The notes under the pieces were generated by a model. The model searched no databases. It saw only the letters and a program-made list of their open reading frames with translations, and was not told the DNA's origin. From contig NW_026516836.1 of assembly GCF_025766255.1 (NCBI RefSeq), positions 1 to 64,000 on the forward strand: DNA of 64,000 nucleotides, written 5' to 3'. A program made the translations under genes and the position numbers. The DNA is from Zychaea mexicana (taxonomy: Eukaryota > Mucoromycota > Mucoromycetes > Mucorales > Lichtheimiaceae). Below, piece by piece: positions 143 through 29,270 of the stretch. Each line of letters starts with the position of its first letter. Positions within the stretch are counted from its first letter, which is position 1.

Positions 143-1663
143 ATGGAGCAAATAGATTATACACCATTAATTACAATAGAAGTAAATACTATTATTGCTA
201 ATTATTGGACATTTCTTGAATGGAATTGGCTTATTATACATAATAAATTTAAACATAGAACACAAATTAAACATATTAAATTTATTGAAAAAATTAAAAA
301 TATATTGTTACAAAAATTAGGTTATACTACTGTCTTTTTTTTCTTAGTTGTATTATATACAAGTAAAGAGTATCCAGCTCCTTATTTTGAGGTAGAAAAA
401 GGTTTATTTTTATTATATCATTTGGTTTCAGGTATTTCTGGAGATGAAATTGAAAAATATTTACCTCAAAGCACATTTCATACATTTTATAAAAAATTTT
501 GGATGAATGAAGAGAATTATAAAAGAATTAATAAAATAGTAAATGATTCATTGATGCATATGTTTTCGAATATAAAGTTACGTATTTTATCTGCTAGAAA
601 ATATAATCCAGATTTATTTAAACATGTAACACTTATTTTAGATGGTCATGATTCACGAATTAATTATACAGATACAGATTTAGATAGGTCACGCTTATAT
701 TCATATAAATTTAAAAAAAATGGTTTACGTACACAATTTGCAGCTGATGTTAATGATATGATAATTTTTATATCAAAAAGTGAATTTTGTACAGATAGTT
801 CTGATGGTAGCATGTTTTTAAATATGAAACTTTATAATAAAATGAATCAAAATGATACTTTAGCAGTTGATGGTGGGTATACCTTATTTATAACACAATT
901 TACTGAAATTGCTACAGAAAAAGGATATGATTTTAACAATGATAACTTTGTTTATCCAATACGTAAAAATATAAATGAAAATCTAACTATTACTGAAGAA
1001 CATTTTAATAATACATTTGGAAGCTTTAGAAGTAAAATTGAAAATCAGTTTTCTGAAATTGGCAATAAATTTTATCGATTTAATAATAATAAATCAATTG
1101 TAAAAATAGATAATATTAAATTTTATAACCTCCAATTTCGTGTAGCTTGTTTATTAAAGAATATTACAAAATTCATTGAATTATTTAATATACCTGTTTT
1201 ACCTCACCATAAATTATGGCATAGTCATGATTTTGATTTTCCTATTGAAAAAAAATTAATTGATATAGTTGTTAGTAATAATAAACAAAATAAAGATAAA
1301 CTTGATAGAATGGTACAACTACAAAATGATTTATTAAATATGACAGTATCAAATAATACAATGGTTATAGATAATGATAGTGAATCAGATGAATTAGAAA
1401 ATAGTGAAAATGATAATAATATTCCTAATTTTAATGAGCGTACTAGAAAAAGAAGAAGAAATATAAAAGGTAAACAGCGTGCAACTGCATCATATGAAAT
1501 AGAAAGTATTGTTGGACATAAAAAGGAAAATAACATATATTTATTTCATGTAAAATGGGTTGGATATAGTGATAATGATAATAGCTGGTTATCTATTGAT
1601 ATGTTTAATCAAAAAGAATTATTAAAAGCATATATTGAAAAACATAGTCTAGGTATATTATAA
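143..1663 (+). CDS. DDE transposase (DDE_Tnp_4-like) with C-terminal chromodomain
   Basis: This 506-residue protein is a complete transposase expected to cut and join element ends in the nucleus. The likely catalytic residues are D167 (in LILDGHDSR), D243 (in AVDGGY) and E300 (in FRSKIENQF). The last falls in the R-x-x-I/V-E-x-x-F pattern typical of the DDE_Tnp_4/Harbinger-like family. Residues 408-425 are acidic. Residues 434-446 are strongly basic (RTRKRRRNIKGK) and could be a nuclear signal. Residues 451-501 form a chromodomain: YEIESIVGH, then the aromatic FHVKWVGY and NSWLS positions. A chromodomain could steer insertion to histone-marked chromatin, as in chromoviruses; that is inference. 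The start is the first ATG after the promoter box. Codon use is extremely AT-rich compared with host genes. Diverged copies lie at 10616-14450, 12276-13796 and 17601-19089. Confidence 0.85.
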   Translation: MEQIDYTPLITIEVNTIIANYWTFLEWNWLIIHNKFKHRTQIKHIKFIEKIKNILLQKLGYTTVFFFLVVLYTSKEYPAPYFEVEKGLFLLYHLVSGISGDEIEKYLPQSTFHTFYKKFWMNEENYKRINKIVNDSLMHMFSNIKLRILSARKYNPDLFKHVTLILDGHDSRINYTDTDLDRSRLYSYKFKKNGLRTQFAADVNDMIIFISKSEFCTDSSDGSMFLNMKLYNKMNQNDTLAVDGGYTLFITQFTEIATEKGYDFNNDNFVYPIRKNINENLTITEEHFNNTFGSFRSKIENQFSEIGNKFYRFNNNKSIVKIDNIKFYNLQFRVACLLKNITKFIELFNIPVLPHHKLWHSHDFDFPIEKKLIDIVVSNNKQNKDKLDRMVQLQNDLLNMTVSNNTMVIDNDSESDELENSENDNNIPNFNERTRKRRRNIKGKQRATASYEIESIVGHKKENNIYLFHVKWVGYSDNDNSWLSIDMFNQKELLKAYIEKHSLGIL

Positions 1664-1724
1664 AAAACATTATATAATATTATATAAAACATTTATGGAA
1701 GAATTATAATATTATATAAAATAT

Positions 1725-2213
1725 TTATGGAAGAATATTATTAAAGCATAGAAAAAAAGGATTACCTAAACTTATTTTTATAGGTTTTCTTTTTTTTTTG
1801 ATTTTTTTTTCAATTTTTATAGGTGGCTTTTTAATTTCTATATCTTTACTATTATTTAATACTGTCTGTTTTCTAGGAATATGTAATTTACTATGTTTGC
1901 AACAAAGAAAATCTTTTTTAGTACCTTCAGGTATATTAGTTTTAATCTTACGGGAACAGAATCTACCCTTATGTTTTCCTTTTTTGAACTTATGCGTACA
2001 GAAATCATTATTCATACTAAGGTATAGAAAATAATCTGACGAAAATGTTTCTTTTATTTTTTTATCTATTTTTTTTTGAATTTTTTTTATTAATTTTTCT
2101 TCGTTTTCTAAGAAATGATCAAATTCAGATTCCATAAAAATATTTATTTCTTCACATAAATTTTTTTGAATTTGAATATGGTTAAGTGGGAGATAATCAT
2201 TAAGTGCAACCAT
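1725..2213 (-). CDS. Small Cys/His zinc-finger protein of element A
   Basis: This 162-residue protein is encoded convergently to the transposase, with the stop codons about 60 bp apart. Residues 30-57 are a charged, Lys/Glu-rich stretch likely to be helical. Residues 72-111 hold C72, H74, C86, C104, C105, H107 and H111 around a GKHKGRFC core, a plausible zinc-binding site. Residues 118-150 are very lysine-rich and probably bind nucleic acid. I cannot name the family. A near-identical copy in element B and a diverged copy at 15340-15827 show that the gene travels with this transposase. An accessory role such as terminal-repeat binding is therefore a reasonable guess, not a demonstrated function. 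Confidence 0.7.
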   Translation of the reverse strand: MVALNDYLPLNHIQIQKNLCEEINIFMESEFDHFLENEEKLIKKIQKKIDKKIKETFSSDYFLYLSMNNDFCTHKFKKGKHKGRFCSRKIKTNIPEGTKKDFLCCKHSKLHIPRKQTVLNNSKDIEIKKPPIKIEKKIKKKRKPIKISLGNPFFLCFNNILP

Positions 2214-3294: not shown

Positions 3295-3365
3295 CAGGAT
3301 TTTTCATCTCCTAGCAGACGTTTGAACTTTTATTTAGGCAGAAGGGATTTAATTCTAGGCAGAGT

Positions 3366-3800
3366 GGACATGAATGTTAATCTGAGTGGACATGAATAAA
3401 AATTAATCTAGACATGAATAAAAGTTAATCTGGTTATGAATAATAATTGATCTGGACATGAATGAAAATCGAGCTGGACATGAATGAAAATCGAGCTAGA
3501 CATGAATGAAATTCGATCTAGACATGAATGAAAATCGATCTAGACATGAATGAAAATCGACCTGGACATGAATATAAATTGACCTGGACATGAATGAAAA
3601 TCGATCTAGATATGAATGAAAATCGAGCTGGACATAAATATAAATTGACCTGGACATGAATATAAATCGATCTGGACATGAGTAAAATCAATCTAGACAA
3701 AATAAAAATCAATCTGTATAGGAATGAAAATCATTCTGGACAAGAATAATAATCAATCTAAACATGAATAATAGACAACCTGAACATAATAACAGTCAAA
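3366..3800. repeat. 22-bp minisatellite, left arm of foldback element
   Basis: About 19 diverged head-to-tail copies of a 22-bp unit (core GGACATGAATGAAAATCGA) run through the outer left arm. The mirror array lies at 7040-7455. Open frames here are by-products of the period: 22 bp times three gives a 22-residue reading cycle. Confidence 0.85.
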
Positions 3801-7039: not shown

Positions 7040-7455
7040 TTATGTCTTAGTTGACTGTTATTATGTCCAGGTTGTCTATTATTCATGTTTAGATTGATTA
7101 TTATTCTTGTCCAGAATGATTTTCATTCATGTACAGATTGATTTTTATCTTGTCCAGATTGATTTTACTCATGTCCAGATCGATTTATATTCATGTCCAG
7201 GTCGATTTATTTATGTCCAGATCGTTTTATACTCATGTCCAGCTCGATCTTTATTCATGTCCAGCTCGATTTTCATTCATGTCCAGCTCGATTTTCATTC
7301 ATGTCTAGATCGATTTTCATTCATGTCCAGCTCGATTTTCATTCATGTCTAGATCGATTTTCACTCATGTCCAGCTCGATTTTCATTCATGTCCAGATCA
7401 ATTATTATTCATAACTAGATTAACTTTTATTTATGTCCACTCAGATTAACATTCA
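7040..7455. repeat. 22-bp minisatellite, right arm of foldback element
   Basis: This is the inverted counterpart of the 3366-3800 array, with the core TCATGTCCAGCTCGATTTTCAT repeated head-to-tail. Copy order and sequence variants differ between arms, so the arrays have changed independently since the arms formed. Confidence 0.85.
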
Positions 7456-7533
7456 TGTCCACTCTGCCTAAAATTAAATCCCTTCTTCCTAAATAAAAGT
7501 TCAAACGTCTGCTAGGAGTTAAAAAATCCTGTA

Positions 7534-8614: not shown

Positions 8615-8900
8615 AAGAGGACTAATCGAATATCTTATGATAATAAGATTTCTAATGAAATTAAGAAATCTATTAATCATTAAGATATTAAAATATAAAA
8701 AAATAAATCTTATTTTTTTATTTTATTCAATTTATTAAAAATCGAATCGATAGTCTGATTCCTAATGCTGGGGGGTCTGATAAAAAATCTTTGATTTTTT
8801 TGAAGAGGTCTTGACTTTGATGAAATCAATCCTAAACAACTGGTAGGTTGTTATTTAGACTTAAATGAGAATCTGGAAGATTCCATTAAGTCTCCTTATA
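8615..8900 (+). repeat. Left copy of hairpin-rich direct repeat
   Basis: This 286-bp copy matches 19503-19790 at over 90% by eye. It is built from hairpins: a 61-nt stem at 8629-8689 with perfect 9-bp outer pairs (AATATCTTA/TAAGATATT), a T/A stem at 8782-8800, a 6-bp AACAAC/GTTGTT stem at 8835-8852 and a stem at 8857-8893. It contains no open frame. Such structure fits a replication origin or a structured transcript end. Confidence 0.85.
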
Positions 8901-9085
8901 GATATTAGAAAAGTTTTTACTTTTCAATATTAAGGACTGGCTATGGTTATAATGATTTTAATACAATCTAGTAACCCTAGATGACTTATTAGCTAAGGTA
9001 TATCAGGATAGCCAAATTAATTTTCATTGAAATAATTCATGCACGAATGTCTTGGCATATATACATTTAAATTTTTGAAAAAAAT

Positions 9086-9120
9086 AAAAATTGAATTTTT
9101 TTTTTAATATTAAAATAATA
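9086..9120 (+). promoter_or_regulatory. Promoter box of the Rep gene
   Basis: AAAAATTGAATTTTTTTTTT followed by AATATTAAAATAATA lies about 65 bp before the Rep ATG. The downstream part is almost identical to the boxes of gene C (10583) and the minus-strand zinc-finger gene (15856-15890). Confidence 0.55.
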
Positions 9121-9183
9121 CCACAGAATATAAAGCAAAATATATTTGTTATATTTTTTATTTTTATTACTTCAACAATCGAC

Positions 9184-10543
9184 ATGAACCAGCTCAACCT
9201 TCTCGTATTCTTAGCTATTATGGCTGAATTTGTTCCTATTTTAGGAATTACATTGACGCTCTTAATTGAAAGAGCAAAACACCTTGCTGAAAACCATTAG
9301 TATATTGAGTATGAACCTCTTGTCACACAACTGAGGTCAGAACTCGAAAAAGACCTTACATAGGCTAAAGTAGATAAAAAAACTAAAGATAATGCATGCA
9401 ATAAAATAATTGGAAGAATTCGAGAATATGTGAGATTCCTCAAATCCTCAAATCCTCAATTTTCTGATGCAATGTTAGAGGGTAACACCTCTGGTGCAGA
9501 TTCCTCGCAGGGCGGCAAAGAATTCCAATTCCAAATCACTAAAGGGCTGTTCACATATATTTGTAAGGACTTCCATTTAACAAAAGAACAAATCATAGAA
9601 TGGTTTATAAAACATGAACGTATTGGTTATTAAATTGAAAAGGCAATTGCATGTGATGAAATTGCACCAGAAACCAATGAGAAACATGTACACATATGAA
9701 TACAAATGAATGAGTGGTTCGACACAAAAACAGCATGTAAATTCTTTACTATTGATGGTGTTACTCCAAATATTAAACCTGGTGGTAATCCACAAAAGTC
9801 TATTAACTATTGTATGAAAGGAAAAGATTATATTTGTTATAATATGGATCCAAATTATGAAATTAAAACCAGAAAAATGCACCAATAGCTACTTGGATAT
9901 CAATTAATTACTAAGTAGCTTAATATACGGAAGGCTACCGAAAATATATCCAGAATTGCTATAGAAATATGATACTGTAAAATCAAATTTAAATTCTTAC
10001 TTTCATGATGCTGATATCGAAAATAACCCTGGAAATAAATTACATATGTGGTCTATGTTTGGTATTGAAACAATGTTTAGTAGTAAAAATAAGATACTAC
10101 AATACTGGATTGTAGGTCCATCAAATGTAGGTAAGACATATAACATTGATGTATTAGAACAAGGTGGCCATCGAGCATATCTAATGAATAAGGAAAATGA
10201 TTGGTCAGATTATAAGGATGATGATTATGATTTTATGTATAATGAAGAAACAGGTTCTGATTTCAAATTAACATTTTTAAACCAAATGTTAGAAGGAACA
10301 TGGTTAAAACTTAATAGCAAATTCACAAAGTCAATAACTAAAAAGAAAAATATACCAATAATACTCAATAGTAACTATATGCCGCACATGTTATACAAAA
10401 ACAAATCAGTATATGAGTTAGAGCCAACGCTCAATCGTTTATATATTATCTATGTTGATAAGAACCGTAAAGGTCATATAATATGGAATCCATACATAGG
10501 TGATATACTAATAGTTTTAGTTTATTTTTATTTTTATGGATAG
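9184..10543 (+). pseudogene. CRESS-DNA-type rolling-circle replication initiator (Rep), broken
   Basis: The relic encodes both halves of a Rep protein, which nicks an origin and unwinds DNA for rolling-circle replication. The N-terminal HUH endonuclease region shows an HVH metal-binding motif near 9685 and a YCMKGK tyrosine motif near 9814. The helicase half (10046-10543) shows GPSNVGKT (Walker A, about 10108), an acidic Walker B ending in YNEE (about 10245) and ILNSN (motif C, about 10365). Before these lies an unusual N-terminal extension with a hydrophobic segment (LLVFLAIMAEFVPILGITL). Five in-frame stops (about 9298, 9361, 9631, 9697, 9886) and one frameshift between 9888 and 10046 make it non-functional. 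Copies of such Reps occur in eukaryotic genomes as endogenous viral or plasmid-like sequences. The shared promoter suggests this one belonged to the surrounding element. Confidence 0.85.
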
Positions 10544-10582
10544 TAAGGATTTTATGGGTAATAAAGATTTTATAGTTTATAT

Positions 10583-10612
10583 AATTGAATTTTTTTTAAT
10601 ATAAAAATAATA
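10583..10612 (+). promoter_or_regulatory. Promoter box of DDE gene C
   Basis: ATTGAATTTTTTTTAATATA followed by AAAATAATAA ends 3 bp before the ATG at 10616. It differs from the Rep box by only a few bases although the downstream genes are unrelated. Confidence 0.55.
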
Positions 10613-11755
10613 ACAATGGATATTAATAAATTGATTACCGATGAAGTAAATTTTATACTTATAATGTATTGGGCTTTTTTAAATTATAATTAGCCCATCA
10701 TTAATAATAAGTATAAACATAGAACAGAAATAAAACATATCAAGTACATTGATATTATTAAAAAAAGTTAGTAGAAAAATTAGGATATATTGCAGTCTTT
10801 TTCTTTTTGGTTGTATTATATACTAATAAAGAATATCCTGCTCCTTATTTTGAAGTAGAGAAAGGTTTATTTTTATTATACCATTTAGTATCTAGTATTT
10901 CAGGAAAAGATGATATTAATGAATTTATTCCTCAAAGTTCCTTTTTTAATTTTTATAAAAAATTTTGGATGGATGAAGAAAATTATAAAAGAATAAATAA
11001 AATAGTAAATGATGCATTGGATAACATGTTTTCAAATATAAAATTAAGAATTTTATCCGCCCATAAATATAATCCAGAATTGTTTAAACACATAACATTG
11101 ATTATCGACGGTTATGATTCTAGAATAAATTATACCGACACAGAAATTAAATATAGCAGATTATATAGTTATAAATTTAAGAAAAATGGATTAAGAACTC
11201 AATTTGTTAGTGATATGAATGATATGATTATTTATACTTCTAAAAGTGATTATTGTTCAGATAGCTCTGATAGTAGTATATTCTTGAATATGAAATTATA
11301 TAGAAAACTTAATAATAAAGATACTGTTGCAGTTGATGGTAGTTATACTTTATTTTTAAAACAGTTTGTAGATTTATCAGTAACTAAAGGTTATAATTTT
11401 ACTGATGATAATTTTGTGTATCCTATTAGAAAAAATCCTAGTGAAAGCTTATCAATTACAGAAGACTATTTTAACAAAACATTTGGAAGTTTCAGAAGTA
11501 AAATTGAAAACCAATTTTCAGCAATAGGTAATAAATTTCATAGATTTAATAATAACAAATCAGTTGTGAAAATAGATAATGGCGCATATGCATTACCAAC
11601 TGTTTTTATATAAAAATTATTGGTAACAAAAATTTAAATTAATTATAAAATTGACTTTTATTTTTAAATAAAAACAAAATCATCTAAAGATTTAAATTAT
11701 TTATAAAATTGAATTTTATTTTTAAATAAAAATAAAATCATCCAAAGGTTTAATA

Positions 11756-12193
11756 ATGGTTGCACTTAATGATTATCTCCCACTTAACCATATTCAAATT
11801 CAAAAAAATTTATGTGAAGAAATAAATATTTTTATGGAATCTGAATTTGATCATTTCTTAGAAAACGAAAAAAAATTAATAAAAAAAATTCAAAAAAAAA
11901 TAGATAAAAAAATAAAAAAAACATTTTCGTCAGATTATTTTCTATACCTTAGTATGAATAATGATTTCTGTATGCATAAGTTCAAAAAAGGAAAACATAA
12001 GGGTAGATTCTGTTCCCATAAGATTAAAACTAATATACCTGAAGGTACTAAAAAAGATTTTCTTTGTTGCAAACATAGTAAATTACATATTCCTAAAAAA
12101 CGGACAGTATTAAATAATAGTAAAGATATAGAAATTAAAAAGCTACCTATAAAAATTGAAAAAAAAATCAAAAAAAAAAAAGAAAACCTATAA
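11756..12193 (+). CDS. Zinc-finger protein of element B
   Basis: This 145-residue copy is about 95% identical to the 1725-2213 protein over its first 140 residues. All candidate zinc ligands are kept (C72, H74, C86, C104, C105, H107, H111). A length change in an A-homopolymer near 12180 shifts the frame, so it ends early in place of the NPFFLCFNNILP tail, which is still readable in another frame. The two 58-bp promoter repeats lie upstream. The core appears intact even though the partner transposase in this copy is broken. Confidence 0.65.
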   Translation: MVALNDYLPLNHIQIQKNLCEEINIFMESEFDHFLENEKKLIKKIQKKIDKKIKKTFSSDYFLYLSMNNDFCMHKFKKGKHKGRFCSHKIKTNIPEGTKKDFLCCKHSKLHIPKKRTVLNNSKDIEIKKLPIKIEKKIKKKKENL

Positions 12194-12275
12194 AAATAAG
12201 TATAGGTAATCCTTTTTTTCTATGCTTTAATAATATTCTTCCATAAATGTTTTATATAATATTATATAATGTTTT

Positions 12276-13796
12276 TTATAATATACCTAGACTATGTTTT
12301 TCAATATATGCTTTTAATAATTCTTTTTGATTAAACATATCAATAGATAACCAGCTATTATCATTATCACTATATCCAACCCATTTTACATGAAATAAAT
12401 ATATGTTATTTTCCTTTTTATGTCCAACAATACTTTCTATTTCATATGATACAGTTGCACGCTATTTACCTTTTATATTTCTTCTTCTTTTTCTAGTACG
12501 CTCATTAAAATTAGGAATATCATTATCATTTTCACTATTTTCTAATTCATCTGATTCACTATCATTATCTATAACCATTGTATTATTTGATATTGTCATA
12601 TTTAATAAATCATTTTGTAGTTGTACCATTCTATCAAGTTTATCTTTATTTTGTTTATTATTACTAACAACTATATCAATTAATTTTTTTTCAATAGGAA
12701 AATCAAAATCATGACTATGCCATAATTTATGGTAAGGTAAAACAGGTATATTAAATAATTCAACGAATTTTGTAATATTCTTTAATAAACAAGCTACACG
12801 AAATTGGAGGTTATAAAATTTAATATTATCTATTTTTACAATTGATTTATTATTATTAAATCGATAAAATTTATTGCCAATTTCAGAAAACTGATTTTCA
12901 ATTTTACTTCTAAAGCTTCCAAATGTATTATTAAAATGTTCTTCAGTAATAGTTAGATTTTCATTTATATTTTTACGTATTGGATAAACAAAGTTATCAT
13001 TGTTAAAATTATATCCTTTTTCTGTAGTAATTTCAGTAAATTATGTTATAAATAAGGTATACCCACTATCAACTGCTAAAGTATCATTTTGATTCATTTT
13101 ATTATAAAGTTTCATATTTAAAAACATGCTACCATCAGAACTATCTGTACAAAATTCACTTTTTGATATAAAAATTATCATATCATTAACATCAGCTGCA
13201 AATTGTGTACGTAAACCATTTTTTTTAAATTTATATAAATATAAGCGTGACCTATCTAAATCTGTATCTGTATAATTAATTCGTGAATCATGACTATCTA
13301 AAATAAGTGTTACATGTTTAAACAAATCTGGATTATATTTTCTAGCAGATAAAATACGTAACTTTATATTCGAAAACATATACATCAATGAATCATTTAC
13401 TATTTTATTTATTCTTTTATAATTCTCTTCATTCATCCAAAATTTTTTATAAAATGTATGAAATGTGCTTTGAGGTAAATATTTTTCAATTTCATCTCTA
13501 GGAATACCTGAAACCAAATGATATAATAAAAATAAACCTTTTTCTACCTCAAAATAAGGAGCTGGATACTCTTTACTTGTATATAATACAACTAAGAAAA
13601 AAAAGACAGTAGTATAACCTAATTTTTGTAATAATATATTTTTAATTTTTTCAATAAATTTAATATGTTTAATTTGTGTTCTATGTTTAAATTTATTATG
13701 TATAATAGGCCAATTCCATGCAAGAAATGTCCAATAATTAGCAATAATAGTATTTACTTCTATTGTAATTAATGGTGTATAATCTATTTGCTCCAT
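12276..13796 (-). pseudogene. DDE-chromodomain transposase of element B, two stops
   Basis: The sequence is collinear with the intact 143-1663 gene but has in-frame stops at about 13038-13040 (end of the central catalytic region) and about 12465 (start of the chromodomain linker). Both stops are explained by C-to-T change of a Gln codon. Several substitutions fall next to catalytic residues: the Gly after D167 and the first Gly after D243 are both Ser. The chromodomain coding part is otherwise preserved. It is unlikely to be active. Confidence 0.9.
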
Positions 13797-14602
13797 TTTT
13801 TATTTATATCATAAAATTCAATTTATATATAAAAAACAATTATTTTTATTAAAAATAATTATGTTTTTGTAACCAATAAGGTAATGTAGAACCCACAATG
13901 TAAAGTTTTATAATTTACAATTTAAGGTTGCTTGTTTATTAAAAAATATACAGAAATTCTGTGAGTTATTTAATATACCAACTATGCCACATCATAAGTT
14001 ATGGGAAACTGAGAACTTTGATTTTCCTATTGAAAGAAATTAATAGATATTATTGTTAGTAATGAAAAGCAAAATAAAAATAAATTAAATAAAATGCTTG
14101 AATTACAAAGTAGTTTCTTAACTATGGATATATCGGATACTCCTATGATAGATAATGATTATTCAGGTGATGAAATTAATAGTGATGCTAGTAATTCGAG
14201 TGATGATTATAAAAAAAGTAAAGAATTATCAAAGAAAAGAAAAATTAAAGGTAAAGGAAAACAAAGAGGATATAAATCTTATGAAATTGAAGCAATTATT
14301 ACTCATAAAATGGAAAATGAAGTATATCACTTTTAAGTTAAACGAAAAGATTATTCAGAAAGTGAAAATACTTGGTTAACTATTGATAACTTTAAAGAAA
14401 AGGCAATGCTAAAAGAATACATTGAAAATAATAATCTTGGTTTACTTTAAATTAATTTCTCTAATATAACTTTATTACTATTTTTAAAAATGCCATACTC
14501 TACCTTATATATTTAAAGAGGTTAAACTCCTTTATTTTTTTAGTTTTATAATAAATAAAGTCAGCTGCTACTATTATTGCATTATCTTGTTTGTAATATC
14601 TA

Positions 14603-15337
14603 TGGTGCCCGCCACCTAGAAACGTAAATTTTCGGACCAATTTTCAATGTTTTATTTCAACTTTTTTCACTTATACAACCCACTTTTTTGGCTTCATAGA
14701 ACAATAGAGAAAGGCTCAAAGAATAGTTCTATGAAACGTTTTTGTATCCATACGAGCAAAAAAAATGAGAAATAAAGTGTTGAAGTTGGTGTCGATTTCA
14801 AAATTTAGCAAAGGATTTTGTCAGAATATCCACCCTACTATACACTATAGTATATGACATTGAATCGGCGATTTCCATATTAAGAAGGTAGTGTAACATT
14901 AGTGGTAAGTATTTGTGCAATATATACCTCAGCCTTCCAATCAACATTGACTGTAATGGTGCCAGGTAAATTATAAGTAGGATGACAGTTTTATTGTTCC
15001 TTCTTTTTCCAAAACATTCTGTACAACGGGGAGACTCAACAAGTACCAGAAGAACCTTAAAATTGTGCAAGAGTCAAAGAATACAATTAAGTAAATTTCT
15101 TATGCGTTCAAAGAGAACTGTCAGTTTTTAATAATCATGTAAGAATCATGCGAGAGTAGTTTGTTTCTTTAGGTCATCCTCTGAGAAAGGACTCACTGGA
15201 TGAAAAGCAGAAAAAATATAAGTCCCACTAGCAAATTTTCGATGAATAAATATCACTTAACTAAAAATGGAAATTTATAAAGGCGGAACCTTAAATTTTT
15301 GAAATGTCCACTTGTTGTTTCTAGGTAGCAGGCACCA
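14603..15337. mobile_element. 735-bp TA-flanked MITE with TGGTGCC termini
   Basis: The terminal repeats TGGTGCCCGCCACCTAGAAAC and TGGTGCCTGCTACCTAGAAAC match at 19 of 21 positions. TA is duplicated at 14601-14602 and 15338-15339. Its GC content is higher than that of the block around it. The open frames are short and unlike any transposase. It separates the end of gene C from the zinc-finger gene. Confidence 0.85.
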
Positions 15338-15339
15338 TA

Positions 15340-15827
15340 CAAAGTTTATTATTCCACCATTGCAAACATAATTTTTTTCATTTTTCTTTTTTAACTTTTT
15401 TTATATCTTTTTTATGCCCATATTTGCTTACAATAACACAGGGTAATTCTGGTTTTTTAATTTTTTTTGATCTTTTTTATTTCTTTTTTTTAGTATATGC
15501 TTTTTACTATATTTACAGCAAAGATAATCAGGCTTTTGACCTTCTAAATTAGTATTGATTTTTTGTGACACATATATCCTTTTTTATTTCCACGTTTATG
15601 TATATATGTACATACATTATTACTACTATTCAAATACCAAAAGTGATTACTTTCAATATCTTGCATTTTTTCTTTTATTTTTTTTTCCATCATTTTTTTT
15701 TATTTTCTTTTGTTGAAACAAGACATTCATTTTCAAAATATTCTTCCATTACTTCTTCCATTATATTTTTAATAGACTTAGCTAGGTTATCTGTACCCAT
15801 AAGTATCTCAGAATTTAATAAGACCAT
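15340..15827 (-). pseudogene. Diverged zinc-finger protein of the composite element
   Basis: Starting at the minus-strand ATG at 15825-15827, the frame reads MVLLNSEILMGTDN, then an acidic helix-like part and a frameshift in an A run near 15690. It then shows the Cys/His core with CTYIHKRGNKKG and DYLCCKYSKKH. Spacing and order match the 1725-2213 protein (C-x-H, a G-rich turn, C, then CC-K-x-S-K-x-H), so it is a diverged relative. The lysine-rich tail follows with a second frameshift. As in element A, it is convergent with a DDE-chromodomain gene (C), so the two-gene pairing is conserved between distant relatives. Confidence 0.7.
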
Positions 15828-15855
15828 TTTAGTTTTTGCTTATAGATTGGATAGT

Positions 15856-15890
15856 TATTATTTTTATATTAAGAAAAATTCAATTTTTTT
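15856..15890 (-). promoter_or_regulatory. Promoter box of the minus-strand zinc-finger gene
   Basis: On the minus strand this reads ATTGAATTTTTCTTAATATA then AAAATAATAA, ending about 28 bp before the ATG. It is nearly identical to the Rep and gene C boxes. Confidence 0.55.
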
Positions 15891-16012
15891 TATATGTAAA
15901 AATTAATTATATGCACGATTTGAAACTCCGAAATACTTAAAACTTTATAAGTTTCAATAAAAATTATAGGTTATCAAAATTTTATTGCTACGGATATACC
16001 CACATAATAAAG

Positions 16013-17609
16013 GTGAAGGATTATGAAAATAAATTCATGTATTATAAAAACATAGATATGTATGAGGACTTATACAAAGATGAATTTGAAAACGAATACC
16101 AAGATCAGCATACATTTATCCGTTATGCACATAATAGTGGTCAGGATGATATTAAAAAATATACAGCGATGGATAAAACAGTAGAGGAACTACAAGAATT
16201 AGCTAATACAGAAAAATATATGAAGGAACAAGAAGAAAAACATAATGGTAATAATACACAGAACAATAAACAACATAAACCGCCTCAACAAAATAATAGA
16301 GGATGGTCAACTGTAAAGGTACCACCATCAGCAGATTGTAGGCATTGGGAAGATGTGTTTAATGATATAAAATGTGATGATGTTGTAAATGATACTACTA
16401 ATTGGGAAAACCCACCAGAAGATATAGAGAAACATAAATACATAGATGTACAGTGGACCCCCGAATTTTTCAACCCCGTTCGTTTCAATACCCGGGCTTT
16501 TTCAAGAAATTTCCAGGGAATGACCCAAAATCATTAATAAATTTTTCAATACCTCGTTATTTTTCATTTTCAATATATCTTTTACCCTTGAACTCTATAC
16601 GGGGGTGAAGTATCTATATTTTGCTACATCATGTGGATGGTATTCATATAAAGATGTATGAATATTTTTAATACAATTTGCAAATATGAGGTATATATCT
16701 ACGTTTATGACCATGTATGCCTATTGTTATGCTCTAAAACAAGAGGTTAAGGTTCTCTGTGTCCCATTCATTTACTGTCGGCGCAAGTGGTCTCTCACTT
16801 GTCTAAGCCTTTCTTTGAGGGAGCCTTCCTCTAAAAAGCAGATAAGACTGATCACAAGTAGTGAATGGTGTTGTTTCAGAAGTGAGTTTGCTGGCTTCTC
16901 GCGACTGTCATTCGTTTTTTCTTTATTTATCGGAGCAAGTAATTGATAGAATCGGATCTCAAGAGAAACTAGGGAAGTCATTATATGTTTATCAAAATCT
17001 TAAACAAGTAGAGCTGTGTGTCAGGTAATTGTAGAAAATATATATTCCATATAATATAAAAGGAAAAAAGCTTGTGGCAGTATGGATTTAGAAACAGTAC
17101 TGTACTACTGTACAGTAGTGAGAAGGTTTCAGCTAAATTTTAAAAGTTTATCCAGAAGATTGCTGCCGCTACCCTTCCCCCGATGAAATTCAAACCCGCT
17201 TTAATTTCAAGAGTGTTCAGGAATAGCAGCCTTGAAAAAAGCGGGGGTCCACTGTAAGTACATCTGAATCAGAGAAAAGCAGTGACTGCAACATACTAAA
17301 TAATATACCAAAACGTAAAAAGAAAAAAAGGCACATTAAAATAAATGGAGAAACAAGCAAATAGTAGAAGAAATACAGCCAAAAGAATATTTTAAAAAGC
17401 ATAAGGATATAAAACAGGCTCTAATAGATGATATAGATATAACAAAAGAAACTGACATCAAAAATAAATCAATAGATACTAATATAAGTATAAGTATAAC
17501 TAATGAATGCATAAAACATAAATATAATTGGGCAAGTAAACGAAAGGCTGATGCGGTCAGTTTCAATATGAGATTTTTTAATAAGCAAATAAGTAAGAAA
17601 TTAACTTAG
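16013..17609 (+). pseudogene. Gene X: unrecognised acidic/basic protein, interrupted by a MITE
   Basis: The frame 16013-16450 encodes about 146 residues, rich in Asp, Glu, Asn and Gln, including EELQELANTEKYMKEQEE (likely coiled coil) and RGWSTVKVPPSADCRHWEDV. A MITE then interrupts it; beyond the TA duplication the same frame continues (STSESEKSSDC...PKRKKKKRH, a nuclear-signal-like patch). After a one-base shift near 17345 a long frame runs to the TAG at 17607-17609. The total would be about 260 residues. The annotated start is a GTG; an ATG lies 26 bp or more downstream, so the true start is uncertain. I recognise no family. Its 3' end overlaps the convergent DDE gene D by 9 bp. Confidence 0.5.
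16451..17254. mobile_element. 804-bp CAGTGGACCCCC-type MITE inside gene X
   Basis: The element begins CAGTGGACCCCCGAATTTTT and ends with the complement of CAGTGGACCCCCGC. TA is duplicated at 16449-16450 and 17255-17256. The first 12 bases are shared with the right end of the 4536-4898 MITE, so both are probably mobilised by the same pogo-like enzyme, but their interiors differ. No coding sequence is evident. Confidence 0.9.
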
Positions 17610-19089
17610 AGCTGAATACCATGTATGGCCATATATTTCATGTAGCATTTCCCGGGAATTAAACTTATCAACTGTTAACCAACTATTATCCTTTACACTA
17701 TATCCAACCCGCTTAACCTCAAATATGTACTAATTATCAGTATACACATGTCCTACAATCTTCTCAATTTCATATGAATTACTATGTTCTATATTTCTCT
17801 GTTCTCTTTGATTTTTTCTCTTGCTTTAGATGTATTATTTTCAGTTTCGTCCTCACTATCTATAGCCATATCTATTGATTGATTAATGTTAAGCTGTAGA
17901 AATTTCTGCTGCATGTCAACCATTTCGTTATATTCAGTATTTACTTTTTTGCTCATTTGAAAATACTAAGTCAAGTTTGTTTTTCTTACTTTGGAATTCA
18001 AAATCTTTTCCATACCATAATTTATGATGTGGTTGTACCTCTATATTATACTTATTTACAAATCGCCATATATTAGTAAGAATACAAGCAATACAAAACT
18101 GAATATTATAATATCTTATATCAGGTATTTGCAATGTAGCACGATTATTATTAAATCGTTCAAATTTAGAGCCTAATATAGAAAACTGTGCTTCTATTGC
18201 TGAACGAAATGATCCAAACTTATTATTAAAGTATGTCTCATTGATTGTTAACGTTTGTCCTAGTTCTTTTCTTATGGGATGTAAAAAATTACGATCATAA
18301 AAACTATATCCAGCATCTGTCGCATTATCTTTAAACTTTTGTATAAATAAATTATATCCACCATCCATTCCTAAACAATCTGCCTCACTTATTTTTTTAT
18401 ACAGTTTCATATTAATAAACATAGTACCATCTTTTCCGATAGCACATTTTTCAGATACTGAAACATGTGTAATTATTTCATTCATATCCTATATAACTTA
18501 TGTATGTATAGCTGGCCCTTTTAATTTATATGAATATAATTATGAATGTGACTCATTTGGTTTATAATACTTTATTTTACTATCATGTCCATCAATAAAT
18601 AGTGTAACATTCTTAAAACCATCTGATTGTTTATTATTGCTGATAGAATGCGAATACGTGGTGATGAGAACATACTATCTAGATCTTGTTTTACCTTTTT
18701 ATTCAATTCATTATAGTTAGTAATCCAGAACCGCTTATATAAATCATAAAATGTTGCATATAGCATAACAGTATGCATATCCTTTCCTGATACACCTAAT
18801 ACCATATGATATAATAATGCAAGTCCTTTTTCAATCTCGCGGTATGGCCCTGGATATTCAATATTTCCATATAAAATTGTAAGAAAATAAAATACAGGTA
18901 TAAATCCAAATCTATTAAGTAATACATCCTTTATATCATTGATTGTATTATTCTTCATATCTTTAATAGCTGTTCTATGATTAAATCTATGTTGCATTTC
19001 AGGCTAAGATTTATCAAGAAAAGTCCATTTATTATCAATAAAATTTTAATTTCAATATCGAGTTGTTCAGTGCGTTGTGTTGTGTTCAT
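17601..19089 (-). pseudogene. DDE-chromodomain protein D, broken
   Basis: This third type of the transposase begins at 19087-19089 (MNTTQRTEQLDIEIK). A stop and shift occur near 19010. Recognisable segments are NIEYPGPYREIEKGLALLYH (18850), a damaged first catalytic region near 18590, MGMDGGY-like second motif (18360; LGMDGGY), FGSFRSAIEAQF (18190) with the Glu, PHHKLWYGKDF (18030), then a frameshift near 17935. A linker and a chromodomain follow (SYEIEKIVGH...DNSWLTVD, 17780-17660) with one stop. Similarity to A is clearly lower than that of C to A, so this is an older lineage. It lies at the far right of the block facing inward, convergent with gene X. Confidence 0.8.
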
Positions 19090-19151
19090 TTTTATTTGTT
19101 GTTATATACTTTAAACAATCGCTCTTTTTTTTCTCGGGGGAGGCTACCAAT

Positions 19152-19190
19152 ATAAATAAAAAAATTCAATTTTTATTATTTTTATTGTAA
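19152..19190 (-). promoter_or_regulatory. Promoter box of DDE gene D
   Basis: On the minus strand AAAAATTGAATTTTTTTATT lies about 80 bp before the ATG at 19089. This is further from the start than in the other genes, with a G/C-richer stretch in between. Confidence 0.45.
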
Positions 19191-19233
19191 ATCAATAATT
19201 AATTCGGCCACTGATGGTTATACCGATCATAGC

Positions 19234-19271
19234 AATTTTATTATCTATATTACAGCTAGTAGATTATAATT
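19234..19271. promoter_or_regulatory. Stem-loop exposing TATTAC, candidate Rep nick site
   Basis: AATTTTATTATCTA (19234-19247) can pair imperfectly with TAGATTATAATT (19260-19271), leaving TATTACAGC in the loop. CRESS Rep proteins nick inside NANTATTAC in such loops. The base two before TATTAC does not fit that consensus fully, so this is only a candidate. Confidence 0.3.
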
Positions 19272-19310
19272 GGTTAGACAACTAATAGCAGGACGCTATA
19301 GTGTGTCACT

Positions 19311-19373
19311 CTTAGTGTCATGCCACTATTATGTCATAATGAGGGTAACACTTAGTGTCATGACACTATTATG
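19311..19373. repeat. Iteron-like 23-bp direct repeats with perfect palindrome
   Basis: Two 23-bp copies differing at one base start at 19311 and 19351 (40-bp spacing). The second contains the perfect 16-bp palindrome TAGTGTCATGACACTA. Partial versions (TATAGTGTGTCAC, ACACTATCTG) flank them. Repeats of this kind beside a stem-loop resemble Rep-binding iterons. Confidence 0.55.
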
Positions 19374-19502
19374 AATTAATACACTATCTGTGACTGATAA
19401 AAAAAACTTTAGTTTTTTTTGAAGTAGTGTTTCATATGTGAATAACATTCACATCGTTTTTTAGGGGTGAAAAAAGGTTTATCTTTTTTTAGGGGGTTTA
19501 GG

Positions 19503-19790
19503 AAGAGAACTAATCGAATATCTTATGATAATAAGATTTCTAATGAAATTAAGAAATCTATTAATCATTAAGATATTAAAATATAAAAAAATAAAACTTA
19601 CTTTTTTTTATTTTATTCGATTTGTTAAAATCGAATCGATAGTTTGAATCTTAATGCTGGGGGGTCTGATAAAAAATCTTTGATTTTTTTTGAAGAGGTC
19701 TTGACTTTAATGAAATCAATCCTAAACAACTGGTAGGTTGTTATTTAGACTTAAATGAGAATTTGGAAGATTCCATTAAGTCTCCCAATA
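19503..19790 (+). repeat. Right copy of hairpin-rich direct repeat
   Basis: This 288-bp copy corresponds to 8615-8900 in the same orientation, including the 61-nt stem at 19517-19577. It is preceded by further short A/T hairpins (about 19397-19425 and 19466-19491). Host-like sequence starts immediately after it, at 19791. Confidence 0.85.
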
Positions 19791-19806
19791 GAAAGAACTT
19801 GAAGTT

Positions 19807-24300: not shown

Positions 24301-24375
24301 GATCATTGCAAGCAAAAGCACGTTTATTTTCTATTTTGTAGAAATATTTTTATATCCAACAAATTTCCAGAGGCA

Positions 24376-27018
24376 GCAATGGGACCAGCAATCTCGCGAC
24401 AGCAACGCAACTTGGCGACGCATAAAGACAGTACGCAGCTGAACTCCATACTTTCCACTCCAGCACCAACGTATGGTGGCCAGAATTTCTCCGAACGTAT
24501 CGGCAGGGCACATCCAAGCACAACAGCCATCTATCTAACAGGGCAAATCACCGAATGAGCATATGGTTCTCAACATGGTTGAAGCAACAGCAGATCAATG
24601 TTACTTAACAGCAATGGGACCAGCAATCTCGCGACAGCAATGCAACTTGGCGACGCATGAAGACAGTACGCAGCTGAATTCCATACTTCCCACTCCAGCA
24701 CCAATGTATGGTGGCCAGAATTTTTCCGAACGTATCGGCAGGGCACATCCAAGCACAACAGCCATCTATCTAACAGGGCAAATCACCGAATGAGCATATG
24801 GTTCTCAACATGGTTGAAGCAACAGCAGATCAATGTTACTTAACAGCAATGGGACCAGCAATCTCGCGACAGCAATGCAACTTGGCGACGCATGAAGACA
24901 GTACGCAGCTGAACTCCATACTTCCCACTCCAGCACCAACGTATGGTGGCCAGAATTTTTCCGAACGTATCGGCAGGGCACATCCAAGCACAATAGCCAT
25001 CTATCTAACAGGGCAAATCACCGAATGAGCATGTGGTTCTCAACATGGTTGAAGCAACAACAGATCAAAGTTACCTTAGTAGCAATGGGACCAGCTATCT
25101 CGCGACAGCAATGCAACTTGGCGACGCATGAAGACAGTACGCAGCTGAATTCCATACTTCCCACTCCAGCACCAATGTATGGTGGCCAGAATTTTTCCGA
25201 ACGTATCGGCAGGGCACATCCAAGCACAATAGCCATCTATCTAACAGGGCAAATCACCGAATGAGCATGTGGTTCTCAACATGGTTGAAGCAACAACAGA
25301 TCAAAGTTACCTTAGTAGCAATGGGACCAGCTATCTCGCGACAGCAATGCAACTTGGCGACGCATGAAGACAGTACGCAGCTGAACTCCATACTTCCCAC
25401 TCCAGCACCAACGTATGGTGGCCAGAATTTCTCCGAACGTATCGGCAGGGCACATCCAAGCACAACAGCCATCTATCTAACAGGGCAAATCACCGAATGA
25501 GCATATGGTTCTCAACATGGTTGAAGCAACAGCAGATCAATGTTACTTAACAGCAATGGGACCAGCAATCTCGCGACAGCAATGCAACTTGGCGACGCAT
25601 GAAGACAGTACGCAGCTGAACTCCATACTTCCCACTCCAGCACCAACGTATGGTGGCCAGAATTTTTCCGAACGTATCGGCAGGGCACATCCAAGCACAA
25701 TAGCCATCTATCTAACAGGGCAAATCACCGAATGAGCATGTGGTTCTCAACATGGTTGAAGCAACAACAGATCAAAGTTACCTTAGTAGCAATGGGACCA
25801 GCTATCTCGCGACAGCAATGCAACTTGGCGACGCATGAAGACAGTACGCAGCTGAATTCCATACTTCCCACTCCAGCACCAACGTATGGTGGCCAGAATT
25901 TTTCCGAACGTATCGGCAGGGCACATCCAAGCGCAACAGCCATCTATCTAACAGGGCAAAGCACCGAATGAACATATGGTTCTCAACATGGTTGAAGCAA
26001 CAGCAGATCAATGTTACTTAACAGCAATGGGACCAGCAATCTCGCGACAGCAATGCAACTTGGCGACGCATGAAGACAGTACGCAGCTGAACTCCATACT
26101 TCCCACTCCAGCACCAATGTATGGTGGCCAGAATTTTTCCGAACGTATCGGCAGGGCACATCCAAGCACAATAGCCATCTATCTAACAGGGCAAATCACC
26201 GAATGAGCATGTGGTTCTCAACATGGTTGAAGCAACAACAGATCAAAGTTACCTTAGTAGCAATGGGACCAGCTATCTCGCGACAGCAATGCAACTTGGC
26301 GACGCATGAAGACAGTACGCAGCTGAACTCCATACTTCCCACTCCAGCACCAACGTATGGTGGCCAGAATTTCTCCGAACGTATCGGCAGGGCACATCCA
26401 AGCACAATAGCCATCTATCTAACAGGGCAAATCACCGAATGAGCATGTGGTTCTCAACATGGTTGAAGCAACAACAGATCAAAGTTACCTTAGTAGCAAT
26501 GGGACCAGCTATCTCGCGACAGCAATGCAACTTGGCGACGCATGAAGACAGTACGCAGCTGAACTCCATACTTCCCACTCCAGCACCAACGTATGATGGC
26601 CAGAATTTCTCCGAACGTATCGGCAGGGCACATCCAAGCACAACAGCCATCTATCTAACAGGGCAAATCACCGAATGAGCATATGGTTCTCAACATGGTT
26701 GAAGCAACAGCAGATCAATGTTACCTTAGTAGCAATGGGACCAGCTATCTCGCGACAGCAACGCAACTTGGCGACGCATGAAGACAGTACGCAGCTGAAC
26801 TCCATACTTCCCACTCCAGCACCAACGTATGGTGGCCAGAATTTCTCCGAACGTATCGGCAGGGCACATCCAAGCGCAACAGCCATCTATCTAACAGGGC
26901 AAAGCACCGAATGAGCATGTGGTTCTCAGCATGGTTGAAGCAACAACAGATCAATGTTACCTTAGTAGCAATGGGACCAGCAATCTCACGACAGCAACGC
27001 AACTTGGCGACGCATGAA
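24376..27018 (+). repeat. Satellite array of about 235-bp units
   Basis: Eleven full units and one truncated unit start with GCAATGGGACCAGC at about 24376, 24612, 24847, 25082, 25318, 25553, 25789, 26024, 26260, 26496, 26731 and 26967. Unit length alternates between 235 and 236. Two junction types recur: GTTACTTAACAGC followed by GCAATCTC, and GTTACCTTAGTAGC followed by GCTATCTC. Linked variants include CATATGG/CATGTGG and ACAATAGCC/ACAACAGCC. Each unit holds an open frame ending in ITE and TGA, but the frame is not maintained across units, so I do not call it coding. The last unit breaks off into unrelated sequence at about 27019. Confidence 0.95.
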
Positions 27019-27030
27019 ACAGCATGGCAT

Positions 27031-27898: not shown

Positions 27899-29270
27899 AT
27901 GTCGAACCCAACAAGTGCAAATCCTGAAGAACTTCGGGTCACTTATGACGACTTTGACTCTGTCAAGCAAGCTTGCGTCGACTGGGAGAAAAAGAACAAG
28001 GTTTCCCTCCGTACCTTGAAAAGTACGCGTACAGGAGAAAAATGAGTCCTCCGTCTTGTTTACAAGCACTTTAAACAACCTACCAATCAAGAGGTATATG
28101 ACGATGGCAAAACTACGACAGTAGAAACCATCTTGGCGAATGACAAAGGTGATGTTATTCGATCCAACAGCAAGGACATCAAAAAACGGCGCGAGAAAGA
28201 CTCCCAGTGAATTGGATGCGAGTTTGAGATCAAGCTGCGGTCATTGAGTAAGGCTAGCCAGCAATGACACGTTGTCTCCTTTTACAACGGTGAACACAAT
28301 CATGAGATTGCAAAGGAGCTCTCGTCGTATCTTTGCTTCGTCAGCTCGATTAGAAGCAACACGTCATTGTTCTTAGCATGATCAAAGGGTACGCCAGTAG
28401 CAATTTCACTGGCTCGCCAATTCCATGAAACCATCATCATGGATACCACGTACAATACAAACAGACATCGGCTTCTCTTTGTAAATGTCGTCGGTACAGG
28501 CAATGTTGATTATCATGACTTGAAAACGTTCTGTATTGCTGGTGGATGGGTGTCTGAAGAAACGAATGACAGCTACGACTGGTTTGTCAAAAAGCATGAG
28601 CAAGTTGTTTGGCCAGCTGAGCAGCCAGTCTCCCCGAAAGCCTTTGTGACCGACAGCGAATCTGCGTTAATGAAAGCCTTGGATCACGTCTTCCCCAACT
28701 CGAAAAAATTGCTCTGCACCAACCACATCAGACGCAATTTTCAAGTCAAGCTCCAAAAGCTTTTAGAAGTTAAAGAAGACTTTGAGGCGCTTCTGAAAGC
28801 CATCAATTACTTGATGGGTGTTGAATATGATGATAAGTTCCAAAACAAGCGACTGGTTCCAGTTGAGGATTTTGAGCTAAAGGCAAAGGGTTGCCAGAGG
28901 CAACGAGAGATTTCCCATGCCAAAGCAGTATTGATGGTGGTGATGGCGAGAGCGGGCTGGTGCTGCCTATATATTATGGAGGCAATAAAGCACAAGGTAA
29001 TTGATTGGTATATATCTCCATAATATGTGAAATTGTAAAGTAAATCAAGTCCAATAAGAGCATACTATATTGGAAGATGCTACAATGGCAATTGATTGAT
29101 GGATTTTACTGAACCGTTTGGAAAGGCGGAAGAGACACTGCTTAGAAAGTTTGAGTCGCGTCTCAAGCTTTGATTGGAACTACAGCTCAGCAAACAAATA
29201 GAGCGGCAAGTATCATTGGCAATCACGTCAAGTCAGGATCAGGACCTTTGATATTATCTCTCGAATTCAG
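27899..29270 (+). pseudogene. MULE/FAR1-type transposase remnant 2
   Basis: Starting MSNPTSANPEELRVTYDDFD, the frame shows a FAR1-like N-terminal region with several stops (28042, 28209, 28275). The best-preserved part is 28430-29023, with TIIMDTTYNTNRHRLLFVNVV (first Asp), AFVTDSESALMKALDHVFP (second Asp) and LLCTNHIRRNF, all standard MULE positions. Weak remnants continue to about 29270 (MDFTEPFGKAEETLLRKFES). It is less damaged than remnant 1 and differs from it enough to be a different subfamily. No terminal repeats were found. Confidence 0.75.

What the first reader, a model, noticed from the sequence alone, without database searches (positions are those of the whole stretch)
8615..19790. 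Possible self-replicating integrating element: CRESS Rep plus two DDE-chromodomain genes and a zinc-finger gene
Seen: an 11.2-kb AT-rich block with direct terminal repeats, one broken CRESS-type Rep, two distinct DDE-chromodomain proteins, one Cys/His protein, gene X, iterons and a shared promoter. Known: CRESS Reps drive rolling-circle replication of circular DNA, and DDE enzymes integrate DNA. Inference: one element combined both, about 7.3 kb after removing three later insertions. I know of no described transposon with this gene set.
Basis: partly seen in the sequence, partly recalled or inferred. Interest (0 to 1): 0.9.

Follow-up and report, generated by a model that had tools for sequence, protein, structure and literature searches.

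The report
Transposon carrying a virus-type replication gene
The block holds a decayed copy of a roughly 4-kb jumping gene, repeated many times in this probably fungal genome, that carries both a cut-and-paste transposase and a replication gene of the kind found in small circular viruses; I found one earlier report of such a pairing, in truffle.

Summary
The core inference holds; its anatomy was misread. Rep and DDE gene 'D' form one dispersed unit of about 4.04 kb. In 29 of 29 other Rep loci the window pieces up to 10496 and from 16002 abut; in 26 of 29 the match runs on unbroken into the DDE gene. 'Gene X' is part of a ~700-aa Rep. The unit has precise ends (GGGGACC...GGACGCC) and 3-bp target duplications in 14 of 23 copies with both ends read (shuffles: mean 1.35, maximum 6). 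Open Rep and DDE frames exist in other copies. Rep endonuclease and helicase segments are under purifying selection (pN/pS 0.15, 0.14). The other DDE genes and the Cys/His gene are separate nested transposons; the terminal repeats are an unrelated dispersed repeat. Nearest precedent: the truffle geminivirus-like transposon (PMC3198968). Best reading: a DDE-chromodomain transposon that acquired a CRESS-type Rep as second gene; DDE integrates, Rep probably replicates an excised form (inferred, not shown). Against: many Rep-broken copies have multiplied, and no viral-type origin hairpin was found.

The parts
8932..10498 (+). Left part of the Rep-DDE element: left end (decayed GGGGACC), 5' non-coding stretch, Rep N-terminal, HUH and SF3 helicase region (broken)
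   Evidence: 8934-10496 or most of it matches in 29 of 29 loci; one search left-end comparison; one search counts 8 in-frame stops in the part that aligned
9184..10498 (+). Rep gene, part 1 (HUH motif near 9690, Tyr motif near 9810, Walker A near 10117)
10499..16003 (.). Insertion 1: a DDE / Cys-His type transposon with a second such transposon nested in it; flanked by a 3-bp duplication ATA (10496-10498 / 16004-16006)
   Evidence: duplication read from the printed sequence
10650..14460 (+). Outer nested DDE gene (broken; pieces 10762-11580 and 13897-14379); edges approximate
11581..13896 (.). Inner nested transposon: Cys/His gene (+) 11756-12193 and DDE-chromodomain gene (-) 13799-12276; edges approximate
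16004..16450 (+).
16451..17254 (.). Insertion 2: 804-bp dispersed repeat, 13-bp inverted ends CAGTGGACCCCCG, TA duplication
   Evidence: ends read from sequence; 20 matches in the genome, 9 of them over nearly the full query, window included
17255..17609 (+). Rep gene, part 3 (C-terminal tail)
17640..19090 (-). DDE_Tnp_4-chromodomain transposase 'D' (broken), convergent with Rep; edges approximate
19091..19297 (.). Right non-coding end of the element, ending GGACGC(T)
8615..8902 (.). Dispersed ~280-bp repeat flanking the element; not its end
19503..19792 (.). Second copy of the ~280-bp repeat

Best explanation
The block is a decayed copy, with two later insertions, of a roughly 4.04-kb DNA transposon with two convergent genes: a ~494-aa DDE_Tnp_4 transposase with an HP1-like chromodomain, and a ~703-aa Rep (N-terminal part, HUH endonuclease, SF3 helicase, C-terminal extension). 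Shown: the two genes recur as one unit with precise ends and 3-bp target duplications; Rep's catalytic segments are constrained across copies. Follows from the families: the DDE protein cuts and integrates, leaving the 3-bp duplication; the chromodomain may steer insertion to marked chromatin. Inferred: Rep was acquired by a transposon lineage whose relatives often carry a Cys/His gene in the same place, and it raises copy number by nicking and replicating an excised circular or single-stranded form before the DDE protein re-inserts it. It can probably act in trans, since Rep-broken copies also spread.
For: Unit: Rep halves contiguous in 29 of 29 loci, Rep tail (from 17253) following in 28 of 29, one unbroken match past 17640 into the DDE gene in 26 of 29; of the 3 that fail, one is cut by a contig end and two break off before. 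47 of 62 D-type DDE matches (73% identity or more) have a convergent Rep within 9 kb; within 3.5 kb 38 of 62, against 2 of 86 less similar DDEs. Ends and 3-bp duplications: 14 of 23. Families: DDE_Tnp_4 7.5e-12 and Chromo 9.8e-8; a profile of ten Reps matches four solved CRESS Reps at 1.4e-9 to 4.9e-9; a low-confidence model of homolog P0001 has Vientovirus Rep, AAV2 Rep40 and geminivirus Rep as its four fold matches below 0.001. Selection: pN/pS HUH 0.15 (0.11-0.22), SF3 0.14 (0.08-0.20), DDE segments 0.24-0.55. Exchange of second gene: D-type DDE copies in C112 (three) and C115 lie beside another gene and lack Rep, and one in C212 has a Cys/His gene 1.06 kb away.
Against: No circle, replication intermediate or Rep activity was seen. 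An in-frame stop just behind the HUH motif is shared by 12 of 28 copies, on both N-terminal types, so copies multiply without Rep in cis. No significant hairpin in three left ends tested (z -0.74, -0.89, +1.70). 9 of 23 copies show no matching 3-bp duplication, the window copy neither. pN/pS used only stop- and gap-free segments, pairs are not independent, and the Rep end segments are weak (0.47 and 0.58, wide intervals). 15 of 62 D-type DDE matches lack a Rep within 9 kb. Co-occurrence outside this genome was not seen directly.
Confidence: 0.62

Rival explanations
1. Real composite transposon, but Rep only binds or unwinds the element's ends for the DDE transposase, taking over the job of the usual second protein; it does not replicate anything.
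For: The second-gene position is interchangeable: a Cys/His gene lies convergent with the DDE gene within 3.5 kb in 16 of 86 less similar DDE matches, 12 of the 16 at 1.05-1.3 kb, another gene in C112 and C115. No origin hairpin found. One metagenomic homolog, P0002, reads H-Y-Y at the HUH site, and 12 of 28 copies share a stop behind the HUH motif.
Against: Strong constraint on HUH and SF3 segments; H-x-H kept in 26 of 28 copies, Tyr in 28 of 29, Walker A lysine in 29 of 29, which suggests that catalysis is used.
Confidence: 0.25
2. An endogenous CRESS virus or plasmid that captured a transposase to integrate.
For: Rep is of viral type.
Against: No relative confirmed in IMG/VR (one scan with two short peptide patterns); the DDE search had 414 candidates in this genome, the Rep search 85, so the DDE family is the larger and more diverse; ends and duplications are of DDE type. 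A capsid gene was not specifically searched for.
Confidence: 0.08
3. Rep is the main mobilising enzyme (Helitron- or Replitron-like) and the DDE gene is a passenger.
For: HUH plus helicase architecture; Rep at least as constrained as DDE.
Against: 3-bp target duplications and short inverted ends; the three catalytic acidic residues (D, D, E) kept in 29 of 29 DDE copies read.
Confidence: 0.03
4. A nest of unrelated insertions only.
For: True for insertions 1 and 2 and the flanking repeats.
Against: Rep + D recur contiguously in 26 of 29 loci examined.
Confidence: 0.02

Closest known systems
Geminivirus-like transposon of Tuber melanosporum (Liu et al. 2011, PMC3198968; 12 passages incl. abstract, and section 8, seen)
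   Same: Repeated unit (42 Rep genes or remnants) with a geminivirus-like Rep and transposase ORFs in a fungal genome
   Different: There 37-bp inverted repeats, no obvious duplications, two transposase ORFs, interrupted Rep; here 7-bp imperfect ends, 3-bp duplications, one DDE-chromodomain gene, open frames in some copies, measured selection, ~700-aa Rep
PIF/Harbinger-type and other DDE_Tnp_4 transposons (family features recalled)
   Same: DDE_Tnp_4 domain, 3-bp duplication, second gene
   Different: Targets not limited to TWA; chromodomain; second gene is a Rep instead of a Myb-like protein
CRESS-DNA virus Reps (geminivirus, circovirus, redondovirus)
   Same: HUH endonuclease then SF3 helicase, conserved motifs
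   Different: About 700 aa, with N- and C-terminal extensions; beside a transposase gene; no origin hairpin found
Helitrons and Replitrons (recalled)
   Same: Eukaryotic mobile element with an HUH enzyme
   Different: Here ends and duplications point to DDE integration

Membership tests
Rep-bearing transposon of the Tuber kind (PMC3198968) | Rep and transposase ORFs in one repeated unit | tested here: met
Rep-bearing transposon of the Tuber kind (PMC3198968) | 37-bp TIRs, no TSDs, two transposase ORFs | tested here: not met
   7-bp imperfect ends, 3-bp TSD, one DDE gene
PIF/Harbinger superfamily | DDE_Tnp_4 catalytic domain | tested here: met
   7.5e-12; D, D, E invariant in the 28-sequence alignment
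PIF/Harbinger superfamily | 3-bp TSD, mostly TWA (recalled) | tested here: not met
   length 3 met, but 1 of 14 matching duplications is TWA
PIF/Harbinger superfamily | second gene with Myb-like domain (recalled) | tested here: not met
   second gene is Rep
CRESS Rep protein family | HUH motif, catalytic Tyr, Walker A in one protein | tested here: met
   Gemini_AL1 below its cut-off for this copy but 2.3e-8 for homolog P0009
CRESS DNA virus | capsid gene | tested here: inconclusive
   frames over 150 aa in three fetched copies are Rep, DDE pieces, a 166-171-aa frame antisense to Rep, and in L053 two frames (303, 156 aa) not identified; no dedicated capsid search
CRESS DNA virus | origin hairpin with nonanucleotide | tested here: inconclusive
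   no significant hairpin in three left ends; a candidate block TAGTAACCCTA is present in 30 of 33 Rep-copy left ends read and absent in 2 of 2 left ends of elements with the other gene
Helitron/Replitron | HUH-type insertion without 3-bp TSD (recalled) | tested here: not met

The most novel reading that the evidence does not exclude
A hybrid class of eukaryotic transposon that uses two unrelated DNA enzymes in turn: DDE cut-and-paste for entry and exit, and a virus-type Rep for rolling-circle amplification of the excised circle, with the Rep slot exchangeable between sister elements.
Probability: 0.35. Interest if true: 0.88.

Novelty: new variant of a known kind. Interest (0 to 1): 0.7.

Why it matters
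It gives a multi-copy, partly open-framed family with defined ends in which a virus-type Rep and a DDE transposase travel together and Rep is under selection. That makes testable whether cut-and-paste transposons can take up replication genes, and how Rep genes move between viruses and transposons.

Tried and rejected
Direct repeats as the element's ends: rejected. X as a separate gene: rejected. Rep relatives in IMG/VR: 21 stretches matched a pattern, none confirmed by tblastn. Origin hairpin: not significant. Tandem head-to-tail junctions with a shared 15-nt spacer (7 sites, up to 2 mismatches, none in the reversed control) first looked like concatemers from rolling-circle replication; but next to six of the seven (C51, C79, C194, C53, C303, C115) lies a unit with the other gene, so I do not count them as evidence for replication. 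The structure of the Rep homolog was poor (mean pLDDT 52.8); only its Foldseek ranking is used. The DDE model was good (85.4), but its best PDB matches were chromodomains at 0.0015 or worse, with Tn5 transposase at 0.015. Papers were searched (all ten allowed); of the listings only PMC3198968 was opened, and the library holds open-licence PMC papers only. Rows given to the counts: one search used 68 of the 84 Rep matches (16 small second pieces left out) and 95 of the 150 DDE matches; one search used 148 of these 150 (two second pieces of C294 copies left out) and 138 of the 150 Cys/His matches (12 rows at or near a listed place left out). themselves scored 150 of 414 and of 293 candidates.
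Full report
What was checked. The window is contig C83 of a 50.3-Mb genome in 305 contigs. Among Rep and DDE homologs with a named source, the closest are from Circinella minor; others are from Rhizopus, Mucor, Phascolomyces and, further off, Linnemannia, so a fungus of the Mucorales is likely (inference).

The unit. The Rep helicase piece 9965-10540 has 84 matches in the genome, some of them pieces of one copy. In 29 of 29 other Rep loci (the best-scoring ones) the window pieces up to about 10496 and from about 16002 abut; in 28 of 29 the piece from 17253 follows, and in 26 of 29 the match runs unbroken past 17640 into the DDE gene. Of the three that do not, L033 is cut by a contig end and L011 and L018 break off before. 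Two fetched copies carry the match through to 19296-19300. So Rep, its C-terminal part and the DDE gene D form one unit; copy L051 measures 4039 bases from end to end.

Ends. Left ends read GGGGACC and right ends GGACGCC, with small variations, a 7-bp imperfect inverted pair (5 of 7). For 23 copies both flanks were read; 14 have a matching 3-bp duplication, none matches at 2, 4 or 5 bp, and 2,000 shuffles of the pairing gave a mean of 1.35 and a maximum of 6. Two of the 14 (C141, C13) share the same flanks, so 13 are independent. The 9 that do not match are C46:80399, C262 (two), C242, C35 (two), C256, C292 and C271; the C35:288192 copy abuts another DDE element. The window copy's own flanks do not match (ATT/ATA, read).

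Genes. Other copies hold open frames for a 703-aa Rep and a 494-aa DDE protein. The DDE protein matches DDE_Tnp_4 and Chromo above cut-off, with HP1-type chromodomains as closest solved sequences. Rep is below the Pfam cut-off on its own (Gemini_AL1 0.0016), as are 8 of its 9 homologs, but P0009 reaches 2.3e-8, and a profile of ten Reps finds four solved CRESS Reps at 1.4e-9 to 4.9e-9. Motifs over 29 loci: H-x-H kept in 26 of 28 read; Tyr in 28 of 29; Walker A lysine in 29 of 29. In one metagenomic homolog, P0002, the second H is Y.

Selection. On 29 loci, using only copies free of gaps and stops in each segment: HUH pN/pS 0.15 (12 copies), SF3 0.14 (22), Rep 225-300 0.24 (26), Rep 455-610 0.24 (5), Rep 1-90 and 610-700 0.47 and 0.58 with wide intervals (10 and 4), DDE 0.34, 0.24 and 0.55 (13, 16, 23). 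A first run gave 0.17, 0.17 and 0.25 for three Rep segments and 0.62 and 0.49 for DDE at low divergence on another locus set. The catalytic part of Rep is thus at least as constrained as the transposase. Against a need for Rep in cis, an in-frame stop just behind the HUH motif is shared by 12 of 28 copies.

Nesting. Insertion 1 (10499-16003) carries a DDE gene on + and, from inverted similarity to the Cys/His gene region (pair I7, an AT-rich stretch), possibly a Cys/His-type gene on -; its flanks repeat ATA. Inside it lies a second DDE/Cys-His element, close kin of the intact one at 143-2213. Insertion 2 (16451-17254) is an 804-bp repeat with 13-bp inverted ends and a TA duplication, with 20 matches in the genome. 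The flanking 280-bp repeats occur in other surroundings.

Exchange of the second gene. Of 62 D-type DDE matches (73% identity or more), 47 have a convergent Rep within 9 kb, 38 within 3.5 kb, and 2 a convergent Cys/His gene within 3.5 kb. Of 86 less similar DDE matches, 2 have a Rep and 16 a Cys/His gene within 3.5 kb, 12 of the 16 at 1.05-1.3 kb (lists incomplete, see Tried and rejected). Three D copies in C112 and one in C115 lie beside a different ~300-aa gene, about 1 to 6 kb away; in C115 that gene ends in Rep's C-terminal tail. The region upstream of the HUH domain (9184-9571) is 94-96% identical to the window in 13 of 27 loci read, 79-82% in 12, with 86% and 74% in the other two, and both main types occur with both types of the piece 16002-16450. 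The simplest reading is that Rep entered an existing second-gene slot; the reverse is not excluded.

Mechanism. Integration by the DDE protein follows from the ends, the duplications and the family. What Rep does is inference: replication of an excised form is my first choice, because the endonuclease and helicase are constrained; an accessory binding role is the main rival. I found no circle and no significant origin hairpin. An 11-nt block, TAGTAACCCTA, is present in 30 of 33 left ends of Rep copies read (the other three, C13, C262:119128 and C212, differ by one or two bases) and missing in 2 of 2 left ends of elements with the other gene; it is a candidate Rep site on few cases.

Known or new. 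Liu et al. 2011 (PMC3198968; passages and section 8 seen) describe a Tuber melanosporum repeat with a geminivirus-like Rep and two transposase ORFs, 37-bp TIRs and no obvious TSDs. Ten paper searches listed no other that I recognised by title or abstract. The present family differs in ends, duplications, transposase number, Rep length and state. I therefore call it a new variant of a known, thinly documented kind.

Noticed in passing
window 143-2213: Open DDE-chromodomain gene (506 aa) with a convergent open Cys/His gene (162 aa): a standalone member of the element type nested in the block.
   Followed up: yes
L124 (C115), C112, L120 (C51), L122 (C194): Alternative second gene (~260-300 aa, coiled-coil-like with a Cys cluster by eye, no Pfam match above cut-off), sharing a linker with Rep and in C115 its C-terminal tail; 105 match rows, many of them only the Rep tail.
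   Followed up: partly
C51, C79, C115, C303, C174, C194, C53: Seven head-to-tail junctions of related elements with the same 15-nt spacer; origin unexplained.
   Followed up: partly
L010-L038, Rep just behind the HUH motif: One in-frame stop shared by 12 of 28 copies, on both N-terminal types: multiplication of Rep-broken copies, recombination, or recurrence.
   Followed up: partly
window 3365-3769 and 7058-7461: Two 22-bp minisatellite arrays whose units look alike in inverted orientation, bracketing 3.3 kb of higher GC.
   Followed up: no
window 24375-27022: 236-bp tandem repeat, 11.2 copies, 96% matches.
   Followed up: no
P0003, P0004: Metagenomic Rep homologs end in a Cys/His cluster reminiscent by eye of the Cys/His second gene.
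   Followed up: no
P0002 and P0031: A Rep homolog and a DDE homolog both report a longest contig of 4,459 bases, JGI among the sources; possibly one contig.
   Followed up: no
window 28439-29020: MULE transposase fragment.
   Followed up: no
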